Positions 8,011-51,733 of a DNA stretch of 64,000 bases are shown one piece after another. The stretch is from Rhodocaloribacter litoris (GTDB taxonomy: Bacteria; Bacteroidota; Rhodothermia; Rhodothermales; ISCAR-4553), in NCBI RefSeq assembly GCF_011682235.2, contig NZ_CP076718.1, forward strand, positions 2,277,793 through 2,341,792, given 5' to 3'. The translations under genes were made by a program, and so were the position numbers. Numbering within the stretch: the first letter of the stretch is position 1; every line of letters begins with the position of its first letter. Under the pieces are notes generated by a model that saw nothing but the letters and a program-made list of their open reading frames with translations, was not told where the DNA came from and searched no databases.

Positions 8011-10761
8011 GTGATCCGCGTCAACCGCCTCCTGCCTCTCCTGCTCGTTTTTCTTTTTTCGGCGCTCGTGGCCGGTCAAGAGACCCGCGGGCAGAACGTC
8101 CCCCCCGATTGTGAGCCCCTCGTCCGGCGGGCCCGGGCGCTGTACCACCACCGCCACCTTCCCGACTCCCTCCACGCCCGGATCGAGGTGGCCCGGCGGG
8201 CCCGGGCCTGCCTGGGAACCCCCGATGCCGAGCAGGCCGGGTTCCTGTACCTCGACGAGATCGACGCCCTGGTGGGGCTGGGCCGCACCGGTGAAGCCCT
8301 GGCCCGGTACGGCGACTATCTCGACCGGTACGGCCCTCGGGCCGATTCCCTCTGGCTATGCGCGATGCATCACCGGCGCGGCTACCTGCACTATACCCTG
8401 GGACACTACGGACGCGCCCTTTCGGATTACGCCCGGGCGGTCACGTACGCCCCCCCGCTCGGCGTGCTCCGGCTGGCCTCTTTGAGCCTGGACCTGGGCG
8501 TCCTCCACGCGTTCGTGCGAGACTATGAGGCGGCCCGGCGCCTGTTCGAACAGGTCGATACGCTCACCCGCGCCCTCACACCGGCCGAGGTCTCCGACCC
8601 CGCCGCGTTGCGACGGTTGCGCGCCCACCTGCCGATCAGCCTTGCCGACCTCATGCTCACCCGGTACGTGCAAGAAGACACGGGCACGACCCGTGACCTG
8701 CAGGTGACGGTACAGCAATACGAGACGGCGGCCGCACAACTGGCGCCCCTCAACCTCCCGGACCGCCTGGCGCGGGTTCATCTCCAGCTCGCCGAGACAC
8801 ATGCCTACCTGGGCGACACCGTCACCGCCCGGCGGCACCTGGAGCAGGCAACCCGCCTGGCCGCGCCCCTGCACGACCCGGTCCTCGACCACCTCGTCGC
8901 CCATAAGACGGCCCTGGTTCACCTGGTGTTCGGAGAGGACGAGGCGGCAGAGGCAGCCCTCCGGCAGGCGCTGGTCCGGGCCGCCGAACTCCCGCCCTCG
9001 CACCGAACCGCCGCCACGCACAACCTGGCAGGCTTCCTGGCCGAGAAGCACGGCGATCGCTGGGGGGCCATCGCCCACTACGAGCGAGCCGCCGAACTCA
9101 CCGAGATCCACCGGGCCGACCTGGGCACCACCGAACTGTCGCTGGCGGCATTTGCCGACTGGCAGGAACCGTACCGGGGGCTGGTGCGCGTCTATCTGGC
9201 GGCAGGACGGGTCGAGGAGGCGTTCATGGCGCTCGAACGCACGCGGGCCCGCCATCTCCTCGACGTCCGGGGCGAGATGGACGCCCTCCACACCGCCGAC
9301 CCCGCCACCCGGGCGCGCTACGACAGCCTCACCGCCGTTATCACGAACCTGCGCACCGCCCTCCAGGGCACCCCTCCCGCCGCCCGGCGCCTCAACCTCC
9401 AGCACCGGCTGACCCTTGCCCAGTTCGAGCGCAGCGCCCTGCTGCCCGCCACCTCGCCCCTGACGCCGGCCGCACCCGAAGCGGTCCGCGAACGGCTCGC
9501 CAGGCAGAACCGCGTGCTGCTCTCCTACTTCATCGACAAAGAGGACCGGCTGCTCGGCCGGCATGCCCGCTCGGCGGTGTTCGTCCTGACGCCAGACACG
9601 CTCGTGGCCGTCCCCCTCGCCGTCTCCGAAGCCGAACTGCGCGCGCTGCTCGCCCGGGTCAGCCCTCTGCTTTCGGGCAGCACCGAGGTGAGCCTCAACC
9701 GGCTTCACTTCGACAACACCGTTCTGCACGAACTATACCGCGTGCTGTTCGCCCCGGCAGCCGCCTTCGTCCCGCCCGGCAGCCGCCTGACCGTCCTGCC
9801 GGACGGCCCGCTGTTCATGTTCCCGTTCGGCATGCTCGTCGAGGCCGAGGCCCCGCGCTATGCCTACCGGGAGGCCCCGTACCTGTTCAAGAAATACCCG
9901 ATCTCGGTGGATGTGGCGGCCGCGCTGCTCCTGGAGGAACCGCCTCCGGGCGACCCGCCGGTGGAGGTGCTGGCGCTGGGCAAGACCCGGTACAACGAAG
10001 AGGCGATCCGGGCGTGGTTCCGCACGACGGGCCTCGCCGGCGAAACCCTGCCCAACCTGCCGGCCGTCCGTCGCGAGATCACCGCGCTGGGGCGGCTCTT
10101 CGCCCGCGCCCGCACCCTCCTCGACGAACAGGCCACCGAAACGGCCCTCTTCGAGCAGGACGTGCCGCCCCGCGTGCTGCACCTGGCCTCGCATGTCATC
10201 GTCCACCCGAAAACGCCGCTCTACAACGCGTTCTTCCTCTCGCCCGACCCCGCCGCGCCCGAATACGACGGGGTGGTCTACCTCTACGAGTTGCAGCGGC
10301 GCCCCTTCCGGGTACACCTGGTGACGTTGAGCGGATGCAGCACGGCCCGCGGCACCTACCAGCCGGGCGAGGGCATGGCAGGACTGCAGCAGACCTTCCG
10401 CGAACTGGGCGTCCCGAGTTCCGTCGCCACCCTCTGGCTGGCCGACGACGAGACGACGGCACGGCTGATGGAGACCTTCTACCGGTACCTTCGGGACGGG
10501 CTGCCCAAAGATGTGGCGCTCCAGCGGGCCCGCCTCGAATTCCTGGAGGAGGCCCCCCCGAGCAAGGCCAGCCCGTTCTTCTGGGCCGGCCCCGTGCTCT
10601 TCGGCAGCGTGGACCCGATCCCCCTGACGCCGCGCCGCCCGCCGGTCCTGCCCTGGCTTCTTCTGATCTTCGCGTGCGTGCTGCCCCTCTCGGCCTATAT
10701 CTTCTGGCGTCGTCGTTCCACGAGCCGGAGGGTTACGGATGAGCACCTCTCCCCTGTTTGA
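8011..10761 (+). CDS. Secreted TPR-CHAT caspase-like protease with C-terminal anchor
   Basis: A 916-residue protein starting with GTG. An N-terminal signal peptide (about 1-22, ending LVAG-Q) is followed by a long alpha-helical region of TPR-like repeats (about 40-420), a linker, and a CHAT domain (about 560-870). The CHAT catalytic dyad is visible as His in LHLASHVIVH and Cys in LSGCSTARG. A hydrophobic segment (PWLLLIFACVLPLSAYIFW) plus a basic tail lies at the C-terminus. The protease domain should therefore lie in the periplasm, anchored to the inner membrane. CHAT domains are caspase/separase-like peptidases. It overlaps murQ by 23 bp, which suggests one transcript. Confidence 0.85.
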   Translation: MIRVNRLLPLLLVFLFSALVAGQETRGQNVPPDCEPLVRRARALYHHRHLPDSLHARIEVARRARACLGTPDAEQAGFLYLDEIDALVGLGRTGEALARYGDYLDRYGPRADSLWLCAMHHRRGYLHYTLGHYGRALSDYARAVTYAPPLGVLRLASLSLDLGVLHAFVRDYEAARRLFEQVDTLTRALTPAEVSDPAALRRLRAHLPISLADLMLTRYVQEDTGTTRDLQVTVQQYETAAAQLAPLNLPDRLARVHLQLAETHAYLGDTVTARRHLEQATRLAAPLHDPVLDHLVAHKTALVHLVFGEDEAAEAALRQALVRAAELPPSHRTAATHNLAGFLAEKHGDRWGAIAHYERAAELTEIHRADLGTTELSLAAFADWQEPYRGLVRVYLAAGRVEEAFMALERTRARHLLDVRGEMDALHTADPATRARYDSLTAVITNLRTALQGTPPAARRLNLQHRLTLAQFERSALLPATSPLTPAAPEAVRERLARQNRVLLSYFIDKEDRLLGRHARSAVFVLTPDTLVAVPLAVSEAELRALLARVSPLLSGSTEVSLNRLHFDNTVLHELYRVLFAPAAAFVPPGSRLTVLPDGPLFMFPFGMLVEAEAPRYAYREAPYLFKKYPISVDVAAALLLEEPPPGDPPVEVLALGKTRYNEEAIRAWFRTTGLAGETLPNLPAVRREITALGRLFARARTLLDEQATETALFEQDVPPRVLHLASHVIVHPKTPLYNAFFLSPDPAAPEYDGVVYLYELQRRPFRVHLVTLSGCSTARGTYQPGEGMAGLQQTFRELGVPSSVATLWLADDETTARLMETFYRYLRDGLPKDVALQRARLEFLEEAPPSKASPFFWAGPVLFGSVDPIPLTPRRPPVLPWLLLIFACVLPLSAYIFWRRRSTSRRVTDEHLSPV

Positions 10762-11674
10762 GCAACTCAAGGCCCTGGCCACCGAACAGCGCAACCCGCA
10801 TTCGCGCCACATCGACCTGGCGCCGGTGCGCGAGATCCTGGAAGTCATCAACACGGAAGACCATCTGGTACCGGTGGCCGTCCGCCGCGAGATCCCGTAC
10901 ATCGAACAGGCCGTACACCTGGTGGTGTCGGCTTTTCGCCGGGGCGGGCGGCTGCTCTACGTCGGGGCCGGCACCAGCGGCCGCCTGGGCGTGCTGGATG
11001 CCGCCGAGTGCCCGCCGACCTATGGTACGCCCCCCGAGATGGTGCAGGGACTCATCGCCGGCGGGCGGGAAGCCATGTTCCGCGCCCAGGAAGGGGCCGA
11101 GGACCGGGAGGAGGACGGCGCACGAGACCTCGAGGCGTTCGGCCTTCGGGCGGAGGACGTGGTCTGCGGGATCGCCGCCAGCCGCCGCACGCCGTATGTC
11201 GTCGGGGCCGTCCGGTACGCCCGGGGGCAGGGGTGCAAGACGCTTTTCGTCACCTGCACCCCCCGGTCCGAGTTCAACCTGGAGGTGGACGTGGCCATCT
11301 GCCCGGTCGTCGGTCCCGAGGTCGTCATGGGCTCGACACGGATGAAAAGCGGCACCGCGCAGAAGCTCGTGCTGAACATGATCACGACGGCCGCGATGGT
11401 ACGGCTCGGCAAGGTCTATGAGAACATGATGGTGGACCTGCAGATGACCAACCTGAAGCTGGTCGAGCGTTCGAAACGCACCGTGATGATGGTCACGGGC
11501 GTGGACTACGCCGAGGCCGAACGGGTGCTGAAGGCGGCCGGCGGGCACGTCAAAACGGCCCTCGTGATGATCCTGGCCGGCGTCGACGCCCGCGAGGCCC
11601 GGCAGCGACTGGAACGGGCCGGTGGGTTCGTCCGCCCCGCCATCGCCGGCGAGGCCTATGATCCCGGGGCATGA
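10739..11674 (+). CDS. murQ: N-acetylmuramic acid 6-phosphate etherase
   Basis: A 311-residue SIS-domain protein. It cleaves the D-lactyl ether of MurNAc-6-phosphate to give GlcNAc-6-phosphate in cytoplasmic peptidoglycan recycling. Family signatures are YVGAGTSGRLGVLDAAECPPTYG and the C-terminal GPEVVMGSTRMKSGTAQKLVLNM. Length matches MurQ (about 300). GGAGGG lies six bases ahead of its ATG, inside the end of the CHAT gene. The coupling to a periplasmic CHAT protease is unusual for murQ. Confidence 0.95.
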   Translation: MSTSPLFEQLKALATEQRNPHSRHIDLAPVREILEVINTEDHLVPVAVRREIPYIEQAVHLVVSAFRRGGRLLYVGAGTSGRLGVLDAAECPPTYGTPPEMVQGLIAGGREAMFRAQEGAEDREEDGARDLEAFGLRAEDVVCGIAASRRTPYVVGAVRYARGQGCKTLFVTCTPRSEFNLEVDVAICPVVGPEVVMGSTRMKSGTAQKLVLNMITTAAMVRLGKVYENMMVDLQMTNLKLVERSKRTVMMVTGVDYAEAERVLKAAGGHVKTALVMILAGVDAREARQRLERAGGFVRPAIAGEAYDPGA

Positions 11675-11681
11675 AGACCCA

Positions 11682-11697
11682 TGTTTCACGTGAAACA
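11682..11697. promoter_or_regulatory. parS site (perfect 16-bp palindrome)
   Basis: A second exact copy of TGTTTCACGTGAAACA, eight bases after the murQ stop codon and 22 bp before the half-site where the TnpB element begins. Confidence 0.9.
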
Positions 11698-11718
11698 CTC
11701 CCTGGCTGGCGGGCCAGT

Positions 11719-11726
11719 TGTTTCAC
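11719..11726. promoter_or_regulatory. Left half of a parS site split by the TnpB element
   Basis: TGTTTCAC here abuts the right end of the TnpB element. The missing half, GTGAAACA, lies at 13151-13158 on the far side of the element. Joining the two gives the perfect parS sequence. Confidence 0.75.
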
Positions 11727-11900
11727 TTGACACTCCCACGGCTCTGGGCACGTGGGATTCTTGCTTCATCGACAGTCGCCTTCGCTAACCGAGGTTAGCG
11801 CCGGTCTTACACCGTCTCCACAAGCATTGCCGAACGATCGTTCGGCTACGGTCTGCCCGACCGCCAGAATATTCTGTGCCGCGTTTATATCGCGGTCGTG
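11727..11900 (-). ncRNA. Putative omega (reRNA) guide RNA of TnpB
   Basis: In this family the guide RNA spans the tnpB 3' end and the element's right end. The right-end hairpin at 11731-11755 would form the 3' part of the scaffold. The guide itself would continue into the flank (11726 downward) and start GTGAAACAACTGG, that is, with half of a parS site. The 5' boundary is only a rough guess; existence is inferred from the family, not from a visible promoter. Confidence 0.5.
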
Positions 11901-12968
11901 CTCTGCCCCGCAGCGGGGGCATACCCATGCCCGCACACCCAGCGGGAGAGTCTCCATCGTGTAGTTACAACCCGAACACGTCTTGCTGCTCGGATACCAG
12001 CGGTCGATCTGCACAAAGCGTTTGCAGTACAACGTCGCCTTGTACTCCAGCATCCCGACGAACGCGCTCCAACCGGCATCGCTGATGGCCCGGGCGAGGC
12101 TGTGGTTCTTAACCATGCCCTTGACGCAGAGCGATTCGGTGTAGATCACGTCGTACCGCCGCACGAGCCGCGTCGAAAGCTGGTGCAAGAAATCCTGCCG
12201 CTGGTTCCTGACCTTCGCGTGCAGCTTCGCCACCTTCCGGCGCTGCTTGTGCCAGTTCCTGGAACCCTTCTGCTTGCGAGCGAGCCTTCGCTGCTCACGA
12301 GCAAGGCGATCCAGCGCACGCTTGAGGTGCTTTGGCCGTGTTACACGGCCCTTATTCCCGCTACGCCACCCATCCGACGTGACGACCACATCCTTCAAGC
12401 CGAGGTCGATACCAACGCTGCGCTTGGTTCTCGGGAGAGGTTGATAATTCACCTCGACGACGAACGAGATGTAGTACGTCCCATCGGGTTCTTGAACCAC
12501 CGTCAGGCTCGACGGAGCGGATGGAAGCGGGCGGCTCCACCGGATCTTGAGTGGGGTGCTCATCCTGGCGAGCGTCACGACAGGCTGCCCCGGTACTCCG
12601 CTGTCTCTGAGCGAGAAGCCGCGCGTGGTGTACGTGGCGCTCTGCCGGTGCTTCTTCGCCTTGAAGCGCGGAAAGCGGGCAGTACCCCGGAAGAAAGCGG
12701 TGTAGGCTTTGTCGAGGTGCCGGAGTGCCTGCTGAAGCGGAACGCTGGAGACTTCATGAAGCCACGCATGATCAGGCTCCCGCTTCAGCGCCGTCAGCCG
12801 CTTGTCCGTCTCGGCGTAGCCGATCTTCTCGCCCCGCTCGCGGAAGGCATCGCGCTTCATTGCCAGCGCCCAGTTGTAGACGTACCGAACGCACCCGAAC
12901 TGCCGGGCGAGCATCTGCCGCTGCCCGGCGTTGGGATAGAAGCGGTATCGGTAACGTAGGGTGGGCAT
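11766..12968 (-). CDS. tnpB: RNA-guided nuclease TnpB
   Basis: A 400-residue OrfB/TnpB. The split RuvC triad is intact: Asp188 (VGIDLGLKD), Glu278 (IYTESLCVKGM) and Asp360 (HDRDINAAQNI), close to the spacing in ISDra2 TnpB. The zinc ribbon is CSGC at 331-334 and CPRC at 350-353. The N-terminus (YRYRFYPNAGQRQML) is the usual helical domain. The gene is full length with no frameshift, so the nuclease may be active. It cuts double-stranded DNA next to a short motif that matches the element's own target. It lies between murQ and mfd. Confidence 0.93.
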   Translation of the reverse strand: MPTLRYRYRFYPNAGQRQMLARQFGCVRYVYNWALAMKRDAFRERGEKIGYAETDKRLTALKREPDHAWLHEVSSVPLQQALRHLDKAYTAFFRGTARFPRFKAKKHRQSATYTTRGFSLRDSGVPGQPVVTLARMSTPLKIRWSRPLPSAPSSLTVVQEPDGTYYISFVVEVNYQPLPRTKRSVGIDLGLKDVVVTSDGWRSGNKGRVTRPKHLKRALDRLAREQRRLARKQKGSRNWHKQRRKVAKLHAKVRNQRQDFLHQLSTRLVRRYDVIYTESLCVKGMVKNHSLARAISDAGWSAFVGMLEYKATLYCKRFVQIDRWYPSSKTCSGCNYTMETLPLGVRAWVCPRCGAEHDRDINAAQNILAVGQTVAERSFGNACGDGVRPALTSVSEGDCR

Positions 12969-13142
12969 GTGGGCGTTGAATCTTTACGAGACATTCAGTG
13001 TCGTTGCGAAAGTTCCTGCTCTCAGACAGGAAGTTGTGCTTTGAGTTGAGGCGCATTCCTCCCACGTTGGGCCGATTGGACGCGCTCCGCGTCCAGACGC
13101 GGCCTTTAAAGCCGTGGGCTTCCTGCGCTCGCCATCCTGCAC

Positions 13143-13158
13143 CCTTTCACGTGAAACA
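13143..13158. promoter_or_regulatory. parS-like site at the TnpB element junction
   Basis: CCTTTCACGTGAAACA matches parS at 14 of 16 positions. The right half belongs to the original chromosomal site, while the left half comes from the TnpB left end, whose terminal bases happen to rebuild most of the palindrome. Confidence 0.65.
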
Positions 13159-13307
13159 CTTCGCACGCAGCCCCCGGGGCGGTCGATGCGACGCGGATCG
13201 CAAATCCGGTCTCGACCCGCCGTATCCCGAAGAACCTCCCCGCGCCGGCAACGTTTCAGAGGCACCCGCGCCGTACCCCCGAAAAACGGGGTTACGGCCT
13301 TTCGTGC

Positions 13308-16300
13308 ATGTACCTGCCCCCTGTCACCGTGTCGCTTCGCTTCCTCGCCGACCGCATCACCCCTGCGCCCCTGTTCGATACCGTCAGAGCCTGGCGCCGC
13401 ACCGCCGGGAAGACGACGCTCCAGGTCCGCGGCCTCTCCGGCTCGCTGCCCGCCTTCCTCATCCATCACCTCCGCCACGAAGGCCCGCTCCTCTGCCTCC
13501 TCGACACGCCGGATGCAGCCGCCTACCTGCACAGCGACCTCCAGCAGATCCACGGAGATACCGAAGACCTCCTGCTCTTCCCCCCGACCGGCCACAAACC
13601 CTACGACGAGGAACAGATCACCGACCTGACGCCCCTGATCCAGCGAGCCGAGGTGCTGCAACGCCTCCTGGACGGCTTCACCGGCACGATCGTCACCAGC
13701 GTACCCGCCCTGGCCGAATTGATCCCGCCGCCCGACCTCCTCCGAGACGAGACGATCACGCTGGCGGTGGGGCAAACCCTCGACCTCGCCGGTCTCCTGG
13801 ACCGCCTCGCCGAACAGGGCTTCGAACGGGTCGAGTTCGTCGAGCAACCGGGAGAGGTCGCCCTCCGCGGCGGAATCCTCGACGTCTTCCCCTTTGCCGG
13901 CGATTACCCGGTGCGGATCGAGTTCTTCGGCGACGAGATCGACTCGATCCGCGAGTTCGACGTGCGCACGCAACGCTCCATCAGCCGGCTGACCGCCACC
14001 CGCCTCGTCCCCAACCTGGAGACCCGCCCCCGGACGGACCGCCCCTTCACCGCCCTCCTGGACGCCCTGCCCCCCGCCACCGTCCTGGTCACCTTCGACG
14101 AAGCTCCGCTGCGGGAACACGCCGACACCCTCTTCGCCGAGGCCCGGCGGGCGCACGCCGCCGCCACGGAGCGCGCCCCTTCGCCGCCCCCGCCCCCGGA
14201 GACCCGCTACCTGAGCGGCGACCGCCTGGAACGGACCCTCCTTTCCTTCCCCCGGCTGATGCTGGGCTCCTTCACCGGCACACCCGCCGACGAGGTGCTC
14301 GCCTTCGAAGCCCACCCCCAGCCCGCCTTCAACAGCAACATGGGCCTCCTCCGGGAACGGCTGGCCGAGAATGCCGCCCGCGGCATGGAGACCATCATCC
14401 TGTGTGACAGCCGGGGACAGGAAGGACGGCTCCGCGAGCTGCTCGAAGACGTCCTCGAAACCGGACGGGTCACCCTCCGGGTCGAGTCGCTCCACGAAGG
14501 CTTCGAGATCCCCGCCCTCGGCCTGGCCGTCTACACGGATCATCAGATCTTCAACCGCTACCATCGCCCGACGGCCCGCCGCCAGAAGAAACGCTTCGGC
14601 GGGTTGAGCCTCCGCGAGTTGCAGAACCTGCAGCCCGGCGACTTCGTGGTTCACGTGGACTATGGCATCGGCAAATTCGCCGGGATGGAGCGCATCACCG
14701 TGCGCGGCCGGCAACAGGAATCCGTCCGTCTCCTCTACGAGGGCGGCGACGTGCTCTACGTCAACGTCAACGCGCTCTACAAGCTGAACAAGTACACCGG
14801 GAAGGAGGGACACCAGCCACGCCTGACCAAGCTCGGCTCCGGCCAGTGGGAACGGACGAAAGCCCGCACCAAGAAGCGCCTCAAGGACATCGCGCGGGAT
14901 CTCATCCGGCTGTACGCGCAGCGCAAGGCCGCCCCCGGCCATGCCTTCCCGCCGGATACCGTCTGGCAACGCGAACTGGAAGCCTCGTTCCAGTACGAGG
15001 ACACGCCGGACCAGGCCGCCGCCACCGAAGCCGTCAAGACCGACATGGAGGCCCCCACCCCCATGGACCGCCTCGTCTGCGGCGACGTGGGCTTCGGCAA
15101 AACCGAGATCGCCGTCCGCGCCGCCTTCAAGGCCGTCCAGGACGGCCGGCAGGTCGCCATCCTGGTGCCGACCACCATCCTGGCCGCCCAGCACTACGAA
15201 ACGTTCAAAACACGCCTGGCCCCCTTCCCCGTCCACATCGACGTGCTCTCGCGCTTCCGCTCGCCGGCCGAGCAGAAAGCCACCCTGGAACGGCTCGCCC
15301 GGGGACAGGTGGACATCATCATCGGCACCCACCGGCTCATCTCGAAGGACGTCCGCTTCAAAGACCTGGGCCTGCTCATTATCGACGAGGAGCAACGCTT
15401 CGGCGTGGCTGTCAAGGAAAAACTCCGCCAGCTTCGCGTCAACGTCGATACGCTCACGCTGACGGCCACCCCCATCCCCCGGACACTTCAGTTCTCGCTC
15501 ATGGGCGCGCGGGACCTCTCGATCATCGCCACCCCGCCCCCCAACCGCCAGCCCATCGTCACCGAAATCCACACCTTCGACAAAGACCTCATCCGCGACG
15601 CCATCCTCTACGAAACGAGCCGGGGCGGGCAGGTCTTCTTCATCCACAACCGGGTGCAGTCCATCGACGAGATCGCCGCCATGCTCCGCGCCATCGTGCC
15701 GAACGTGCGCATCCGGGTAGCCCACGGGCAGATGAAAGGCAGCGCCCTCGAACGGGTGATGATGGACTTCGTGGACCGCAAGTTCGACGTGCTCGTGAGC
15801 ACCAACATCATCGAGAACGGGCTGGATATCTCGAACGCCAACACGATCCTCATCAACCACGCCGACCGCTTCGGGCTGGCCGAGCTGCACCAGCTGCGCG
15901 GGCGCGTGGGCCGCTCGGACCGGAAGGCGTTCTGCTACCTGCTCGTACCCTCCATCCACGGCCTCACACGCGAGGCCCGGCAGCGGCTGCAGGCCGTCGA
16001 AGAGTTCAGCGACCTTGGCAGCGGCTTCAGCCTCGCCATGCGCGACCTCGACATCCGCGGCGCGGGCAACCTCCTGGGCGCCGAACAGAGCGGCTTCATC
16101 GCCGACGTCGGCTTCGAAACGTATCACAAGATCCTCGACGAGGCCGTGCAGGAGCTGCAGAGCGAGGAGTTCGCCGACGTCTTCGAACGGCGCCCGGCCC
16201 CCCGGCCCGTCGAGACGACCCTCGACGTGGAAGCCGACGCCCTCATCCCGGAAACCTACCTCGCCAACAGCGTCGAGCGCCTGAACCTCTACCGCCGCAT

Positions 16301-40304: not shown

Positions 40305-40830
40305 ATAGCGTTGGTCTATGCTATCGAAACTGTCGTTGTGCAGCGCGATGTAGCCGCACCCTTCACGGGTGCGCTCCCCTCTCCGCCGGCGCACCCGGGC
40401 TAAAGCCCGCGGCTACACGGTACGTTCGAGGAGCAATGTAGCCGCACCCTTCACGGGTGCGCCCCCCCTCTCCGCCGACGCGCCCGGGCTAAAGCCCGCG
40501 GCTACACGGTACGTTCGAGGAGCAATGTAGCCGCACCCTTCACGGGTGCGCTCCCCCTCTCCGCCGACGCGCCCGGGCTAAAGCCCGCGGCTACACGGTA
40601 CGTTCGAGGAGCAATGTAGCCGCACCCTTCACGGGTGCGCTCCCCTCTCCGCCGGCGCACCCGGGCTAAAGCCCGCAGCTACCCGGTACGCTCGAGGAGC
40701 GATGTAGCCGCACCCTTCACGGGTGCGCTCCCCTCTCCGCCGGCACGCCCGGGCTAAAGCCCGCGGCTACACGGTGGGTCCGGTTCGCTAAGGGCAGCCA
40801 TGCCCTCCATAACCATGACCTCCGCTATAT
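40303..40830. mobile_element. MITE-like element with cruciform repeats, copy 1 (fabD-fabG)
   Basis: 528 bp bounded by imperfect terminal inverted repeats of about 17 bp (ATATAGCGTTGGTCTATG and CATGACCTCCGCTATAT). It fills the space between the fabD stop codon and the fabG start codon and encodes nothing recognisable. Inside are five tandem units. A shorter relative at 51191-51461 has the same ends and the same internal unit, which shows that both are copies of one element. Confidence 0.75.
40348..40775. repeat. Five tandem 88-89 bp cruciform units
   Basis: Units begin at 40348, 40436, 40525, 40614 and 40702. Each is a nested palindrome: outer arms GTAGCCGC and GCGGCTAC, with inner hairpins GCACCC-TTCAC-GGGTGC and CGGGCT-AA-AGCCCG. 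Units are over 90% identical, so amplification was recent. Confidence 0.9.
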
Positions 40831-51061: not shown

Positions 51062-51733
51062 CGGCCGTCCGTTGAAGCAACCGGCACGTCATTCTTTAAC
51101 TGATGTTGCGCAGTAAGCGTCGAAGCCGCCACGTTTCTCCCCTTGCGCTTCGTGACAACCCCCCCGACCAGTTGACAGGGGTAGGTTTTCATATAGCGTT
51201 GGTCCATGCTGTTGAAGGCGCCGTTGTACAGCGCGATGTAGCCGCACCCTTCACGGGTGCGCCCCCCTCTCCGCCGGCACGCCCGGGCTAAAGCCCGCGA
51301 CTACAGGAAACAACCCTGTAGCCGCACCCTTCACGGGTGCGCCCCCCCTCTCCGCCGGCACGCCCGGGCTAACGGGACGCGCAACGCGTCCAGATCCGCG
51401 GCTACACGTGGGCCGTTCGCTAAGGGCAACCATGCCCTCAATAACCATGACCTCCGCTATAGTCCTGCCGTCGCACCGGTCTCCACTGCGTAACATCATT
51501 CTTTAAAACACAGAAACATGGGGCGTATAACCTCCGGCGCGGGCCGGCGATGCAAAAGGCCCGCCGGCTGTGAAGCGGGCCAGGCCGGGATCCTGTTAAA
51601 GCTCTGCAAATACGCCGGTCCCGTTTGGATTCGAAAGGGCCGTGCGGTATCCTTCCCGGTCTCCTTTCGTTAAAGGGATTTTCGAACCGGACGCGAGCGA
51701 GCCGTTCTTTCAAACTAGGATACCGGAACCGCC
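51062..51733. other. comEC-nusB intergenic region
   Basis: 670 bp with no protein gene. It contains repeat element copy 2 (51191-51461) and a GGCCCGC/GCGGGCC hairpin at 51558-51581 with four As on its left, which would be a weak minus-strand terminator for an unknown transcript. The nusB promoter should lie within the last 120 bp. Confidence 0.6.
51191..51461. mobile_element. MITE-like element, copy 2 (comEC-nusB)
   Basis: 271 bp with the same ends as copy 1 (ATATAGCGTTGGTCCATG and CATGACCTCCGCTATA) and about 80-85% identity in the flanks. It holds two cruciform units instead of five. The second unit carries an extra palindrome, GGACGCG-CAA-CGCGTCC (51375-51391), in the loop of its right hairpin. 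Confidence 0.75.

What the first reader, a model, noticed from the sequence alone, without database searches (positions are those of the whole stretch)
11719..13158. TnpB element has split a parS site exactly in the centre
Left of the element the sequence ends TGTTTCAC; right of it the sequence resumes GTGAAACA. Joined, they restore a perfect parS palindrome with no target duplication, as expected for IS200/IS605 transposition 3' of TTTCAC. The right end keeps GAAT, hairpin and TCAA as in IS608. A mobile element targeting the partition site would land near the origin in any host and could be favoured in evolution.
Basis: partly seen in the sequence, partly recalled or inferred. Interest (0 to 1): 0.8.

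Follow-up and report, generated by a model that had tools for sequence, protein, structure and literature searches.

The report
TnpB mobile element splits a parS
A common RNA-guided mobile element has landed exactly in the middle of one of a bacterium's chromosome-partition sites; the split is real, but the element appears simply to insert after the short word TCAC, with no sign that it seeks partition sites out.

Summary
A 1,424-bp tnpB-only element (window 11727–13150, minus strand) separates TGTTTCAC from GTGAAACA; joined, the flanks give a perfect parS with no target duplication. Relatives show the site was parS: the murQ–mfd gap holds parS in 17 of the 25 relative loci where murQ was seen beside mfd, and two or more in 12 of 25. 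The one same-family genome drawn has three there and lacks the element. The interpretation, parS targeting, is not supported: only 1 of 10 insertions is in a parS, the guide words (GAAG/GAAT) predict a plain TCAC target, and no second case appeared in two wider scans. No Y1 TnpA transposase was found in the genome. That may be selected repair or chance.

The parts
11682..11697 (.). intact parS TGTTTCACGTGAAACA, neighbour of the split one
   Evidence: 0 mismatches; start-to-start distance 37 nt to the split site
11719..11726 (.). half of the split parS (TGTTTCAC); on the minus strand GTGAAACA, i.e. the flank 3' of the transposon RE
11707..11726 (-). expected 20-nt guide at the 3' end of the omega/re-RNA: GTGAAACAACTGGCCCGCCA; its first 8 nt are a half-parS
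   Evidence: position follows from the RE end and the TnpB model of PMC8612924 (passages); RNA not measured
11727..13150 (-). TnpB-only IS200/IS605-type element, 1,424 bp
   Evidence: ends fixed by 10 LEs and 8 REs in the genome
11727..11730 (-). right cleavage word TCAA
   Evidence: 8 of 8 exact RE matches
11734..11757 (-). RE hairpin
   Evidence: DNA fold -9.0 kcal/mol, z -2.8
11757..11760 (-). right guide word GAAT at the foot of the RE hairpin
   Evidence: read; same word as IS608 G_R (PMC5934647 passage)
11766..12968 (-). tnpB, 400 aa, OrfB_IS605 / Cas12f1-like TNB / HTH_OrfB domains
   Evidence: ISDra2 TnpB 8bf8, E 1.9e-74; dN/dS 0.13-0.16 of the window copy against the four other copies with a protein over 350 aa
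12334..12350 (.). short palindrome GGCCGTGTTACACGGCC inside tnpB, at an in-frame 6-aa insert (KGRVTR)
   Evidence: insert present in 2 of 5 aligned copies
13061..13118 (-). LE imperfect hairpin (outer stem CCCACG/CGTGGG)
   Evidence: z only -1.2
13119..13122 (-). left guide word GAAG just before the LE hairpin; predicts target TCAC
   Evidence: read; rule inferred from the IS608 words
13143..13158 (.). LE junction CCTTTCACGTGAAACA: partly rebuilt parS (2 mismatches, outer positions of one half)
   Evidence: T at element base +2 unique among 10 LEs
13151..13158 (.). other half of the split parS (GTGAAACA); minus strand TGTTTCAC = target flank of the LE

Best explanation
A TnpB-only element of the IS200/IS605 superfamily inserted, by ordinary single-strand transposition 3' of a TCAC word, into the second of two tandem parS sites between murQ and mfd. 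Target choice is set by the element's left guide word GAAG, which fits TCAC; parS happens to contain TTTCAC|G. The insertion was tolerated because an intact parS lies 37 nt away and three more parS lie within about 7 kb. The transposase that moved it was supplied in trans, and no Y1 TnpA is detectable now. TnpB, still under purifying selection, probably keeps the copy in place by cutting empty sites (TTCAC + GTGAAACAACTGG...) so that they are refilled by repair. Shown: site, ends, ancestral parS array in relatives, common target word, no detectable TnpA, purifying selection. Inferred: the trans transposase, the guide-target rule here, TnpB cutting and homing, tolerance through redundancy.
For: Joined flanks give TGTTTCACGTGAAACA exactly. 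10 of 10 LEs after TCAC, 8 of 8 exact REs end TCAA, base after the target G in 5 of 8. GAAT/TCAA identical to IS608 G_R/C_R, and GAAG/TCAC follows the same pattern as AAAG/TTAC (words from PMC5934647). 17 of 25 relative murQ-mfd gaps carry parS and 12 of 25 carry at least two; the same-family genome G001 has three there and no copy of the element. One ParB gene. No Y1 transposase, while 5 of 14 control genomes rang. dN/dS 0.13-0.20 over ten copy pairs. TnpB aligns to ISDra2 TnpB with the GIDLG, TES and DRD stretches kept (that these hold the RuvC catalytic residues is recalled).
Against: The chance of a parS hit looks low if all YTCAC sites were equally open: about 10 of an estimated 12,300 sites, roughly 0.8% over 10 insertions, or about 2% if TCAC|G is required. 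No strain-level empty site of the same species was available; the relatives are of other genera. A TnpA too divergent for PF01797 could have been missed.
Confidence: 0.85

Rival explanations
1. The element prefers parS (by sequence, or because ParB-bound or origin-near DNA is more open), so parS is a recurrent safe harbour.
For: One insertion is exactly in parS, with a naive chance of about 1-2% over 10 insertions (counts). parS offers TTCAC|G, the commonest kind of target seen.
Against: 9 of 10 LEs are elsewhere in YTCAC sites. 0 of 3 hits of the 18-base junction pattern in 84,980 genomes are TnpB junctions; 0 of 5 non-window hits in 394 genomes of the phylum. Of 38 related TnpB loci looked at downstream of the gene, only the window's own shows a right end followed by GTGAAACA (in several the right end could not be seen).
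Confidence: 0.06
2. After insertion, selection for ParB binding partly repaired the junction: element base +2 changed from A to T, restoring the 12-bp core TTTCACGTGAAA at the left end. (Compatible with the best explanation, as an addition to it.)
For: Base +2 is T only here; it is A in the other 9 of 10 LEs. The 29 bases from +4 on are identical to those of two other LEs, so the end is otherwise conserved. The result is a 2-mismatch parS.
Against: The restored half still lacks the G next to the outermost base; 36 of 36 murQ-mfd parS of relatives have G/C there, and ParB distinguishes parS from NBS partly by that guanine (guanine 1 in PMC7383237, passages read). Sites with one such G missing were found, besides the window, in one other of 113 genomes of the order (G009, two sites). 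It is a single substitution, and alignment to the GATAAAAG form is ambiguous.
Confidence: 0.3
3. The parS-like halves are chance and the locus never was a second parS.
For: TTTCAC words are left beside many insertions of this family by its target choice.
Against: 8 + 8 bases join to a perfect parS, beside another parS, in a gap that carries tandem parS in relatives.
Confidence: 0.02

Closest known systems
IS200/IS605 superfamily, tnpB-only (IS1341-like, name recalled) elements
   Same: TnpB alone between subterminal hairpins; GAAT guide and TCAA right end; insertion 3' of a short word without target duplication
   Different: target word TCAC with left guide GAAG; no TnpA found in the whole genome; one copy sits in parS
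IS608 (Helicobacter pylori)
   Same: right words GAAT/TCAA identical; left guide/target words of the same kind (passage)
   Different: IS608 uses AAAG/TTAC and carries tnpA
ISDra2 TnpB (Deinococcus radiodurans)
   Same: closest natural relative with a solved structure (8bf8, E 1.9e-74); the target is mostly followed by G, as reported for ISDra2 TTGAT|G (passage)
   Different: TAM/target TTGAT there, expected YTCAC here
chromosomal ParABS parS sites
   Same: 16-bp TGTTTCACGTGAAACA, clustered, ParB present
   Different: one of five is split by a mobile element

Membership tests
IS200/IS605 tnpB-only element | TnpB with OrfB_IS605 and zinc-ribbon domains | tested here: met
   PF01385, PF07282, PF12323 all over cut-off
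IS200/IS605 tnpB-only element | insertion 3' of a fixed short word, no target duplication | tested here: met
   10 of 10 LEs after TCAC; flanks of six long copies show no duplication; the empty site itself is inferred (through parS) for the window copy only
IS200/IS605 tnpB-only element | subterminal hairpins with guide words | tested here: met
   RE hairpin z -2.8; LE hairpin weak, z -1.2; words GAAG and GAAT read in the sequence
IS200/IS605 tnpB-only element | a Y1 TnpA in the genome to mobilise it | tested here: not met
   no PF01797 match in the 4.5-Mb genome. A tnpB-only element need not carry it, so this does not exclude membership; no helper is present now
IS200/IS605 tnpB-only element | RNA-guided cleavage next to the target word | not testable with these tools
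   needs an assay; only sequence similarity and dN/dS here
parS | 16-bp palindrome, clustered, conserved position, ParB in the genome | tested here: met
   ParB binding not tested
parS-targeting element | excess of insertions in parS | tested here: not met
   1 of 10 LEs; 0 further cases in two wider scans

The most novel reading that the evidence does not exclude
An element lodged in parS that has been tuned to the site: its outer end now regenerates a core parS, so the host keeps a ParB-binding site, and its guide RNA begins with the parS half GTGAAACA beside a TTTCAC TAM, so that its TnpB meets every parS of any host with TAM plus a 7- to 8-base seed and competes with ParB or favours homing into partition sites.
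Probability: 0.07. Interest if true: 0.7.

Novelty: new member of a known kind. Interest (0 to 1): 0.3.

Why it matters
It is a clean natural case of a TnpB element inside a partition site, with both ends fixed by sister copies. If the rebuilt left junction binds ParB, it would show how a host and an element reach a truce at an important DNA site; if it does not, it shows that a tandem parS array can lose one member. The parS-targeting idea would have made TnpB elements origin-seeking, but the data do not carry it.

Tried and rejected
parS targeting: tested by all LEs found in the genome, by an 18-base RE/parS junction pattern in the 84,980-genome collection (3 hits, none with a full parS or a TnpB match), and by a 14-base pattern in 394 genomes of the phylum (five hits besides the window, none a TnpB right end). 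The 18-base pattern only sees right ends that read GGAGTGTCAA exactly, so it is a narrow test, and the 394 genomes were an even draw from a larger group.

Named close relatives: the search for related loci with TnpB in genome contigs gave nothing, so the organism and its relatives remain unnamed. Rfam gave no match in 10700–14200. A motif scan for ParA/ParB in the window and in a 40-kb stretch around the parS cluster found nothing; ParB lies about 0.49 Mb from the cluster. Closeness to the replication origin was not shown: the window's GC skew is not clear-cut. Whether the other insertions lie in genes was not tested.

Literature: TnpB + parS + ParB (one plasmid-curing paper, listing only), IS605 + parS site (one review; the passages read are unrelated), transposon insertion + parS + within parS (none), parS + insertion sequence + interrupted by + ParB (one resistance-plasmid paper, listing only), parS + insertion sequence + TnpB (the same plasmid-curing paper). 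No report of a TnpB element in parS was seen in these listings of open-licence papers; subscription journals are mostly not held.

Full report
What is there. The window lies at 2,277,793–2,341,792 of a 4.50-Mb single-contig genome. Then comes a 1,424-bp element with tnpB on the minus strand, then GTGAAACA at 13151–13158. Joined, the flanks give TGTTTCACGTGAAACA.

Are the ends right? DNA search of the genome found six long copies at 84–100% identity (the window's own included) and many fragments. I found ten left ends, seven by an end pattern and three by a looser match in long copies whose left end has diverged (L007, L008, L010), and eight exact right ends. All ten left ends follow TCAC: TTCAC in six, CTCAC in four. 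All eight right ends read AGTGTCAA. A ninth right-end-like match with two mismatches, ending TCAC, was dropped. The base after the target is G in five of eight. So 11727/13150 is confirmed.

Was it a parS? A search with the start of mfd rang in 39 of 40 genomes, the window's own included. murQ was seen beside mfd in 25 of these 30. Of the 25 gaps, 17 hold at least one parS (up to 3 mismatches) and 12 hold two or more, 36–59 nt apart except for 238 nt in L072; 8 of 25 hold none. G001 has three there and no copy of the element by DNA or by protein at E 1e-60. The split site therefore fits an old tandem parS array. The genome has one ParB match and four other parS: two exact, one with one mismatch and one with two.

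Why there? IS608 pairs its left guide AAAG with target TTAC and its right guide GAAT with TCAA (passage in PMC5934647). Here the right words are the same and the left guide before the LE hairpin is GAAG. Comparing the two known pairs, the first guide base goes with the second target base and the last with the last; GAAG then predicts TCAC (my inference), which is what all ten flanks show. TCAC is common: the window count scales to about 27,000 sites per genome, YTCAC to about 12,300, YTCAC followed by G to about 5,100 (extrapolated from 64 kb). Five parS give ten strand sites, so ten insertions would hit one by chance with a probability of about 0.8–2%, more if genes are avoided. That is unusual but does not need targeting, and nothing recurrent was found: 0 of 3 hits of an 18-base junction pattern in the 84,980-genome collection, and 0 of 5 non-window hits in 394 genomes of the phylum.

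How does it live? No Y1 transposase was found in the genome with PF01797, while 5 of 14 control genomes rang. TnpB matches ISDra2 TnpB (8bf8, E 1.9e-74) and the GIDLG, TES and DRD stretches, recalled as holding the RuvC catalytic residues, are kept. Among the five copies with a protein over 350 aa, dN/dS is 0.13–0.20 in all ten pairs at dS 0.22–0.50 (the sixth copy has a broken reading frame and was left out). So the copies are old and TnpB function seems kept. The model of PMC8612924 (passages) is that TnpB cuts the empty site next to the target word and repair restores the element; this is the likeliest reason for retention here, but it is untested. The transcript end with the guide folds better than shuffles (z -4.4).

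A detail against simple loss. The left junction reads CCTTTCACGTGAAACA because this copy begins GTGAAAGG, while the others begin GAGAAAGG (5) or GATAAA (4). A single A-to-T from the GAGAAAGG form rebuilds the 12-bp core of parS. Yet 36 of 36 parS sites in the relatives' gaps have the outer G/C pair that this junction lacks on one side. ParB contacts that guanine (PMC7383237, passages). Sites lacking it on one side turned up, besides the window, only twice, both in one of the 113 genomes searched. It may be a partly repaired site or a coincidence.

Seed overlap. Because the guide starts inside parS, its first 7–8 bases match every parS of the genome next to TTCAC, with 8–14 of 21 bases matching overall; at the element's own left end 7 of 21 match. 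That is probably too short for cutting (recalled), but it is the basis of the bold reading.

Verdict. Real, precisely placed and now backed by comparative evidence; ordinary in mechanism; the targeting claim is not borne out. Interest 0.3.

Noticed in passing
12334-12350; also 13078-13094 and 51375-51391: Short palindromes (GGCCGTGTTACACGGCC, GGACGCGCTCCGCGTCC, GGACGCGCAACGCGTCC) sit inside tnpB, in the LE hairpin and elsewhere; in tnpB the insert is in frame (KGRVTR) and present in 2 of 5 aligned copies, as if small palindromes move on their own.
   Followed up: partly
G000:C1 2071801-2071829 and 415023-415051 (L105, L104): The left end of this element family lies about 0.5 kb upstream of a distant TnpB (29-30% identity, L051 and L052) with a different right end, which suggests end swapping between TnpB lineages.
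   Followed up: no
G000:C1 1816394-1816455 (L107, L111): A 62-bp mini-element made only of this family's left and right ends, a likely non-autonomous derivative.
   Followed up: no
40345-40821 and 51233-51461: Two arrays sharing an 88-89 nt repeat (a common 30-nt stretch ending CCCGGGCTAA), 10.5 kb apart, with a short palindrome just after the 30-nt stretches of the second array.
   Followed up: no
left ends: The base five before the cut and the first bases of the element go together: CTCAC with GAG (4 of 4); TTCAC with GAT in 4 of 6, GAG in 1 and GTG in 1; perhaps two sub-lineages with slightly different targets.
   Followed up: no
G000:C1 genome-wide: About 17 TnpB loci of several lineages (29-100% identity to the window's), plus fragments, but no Y1 transposase found in the genome.
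   Followed up: partly
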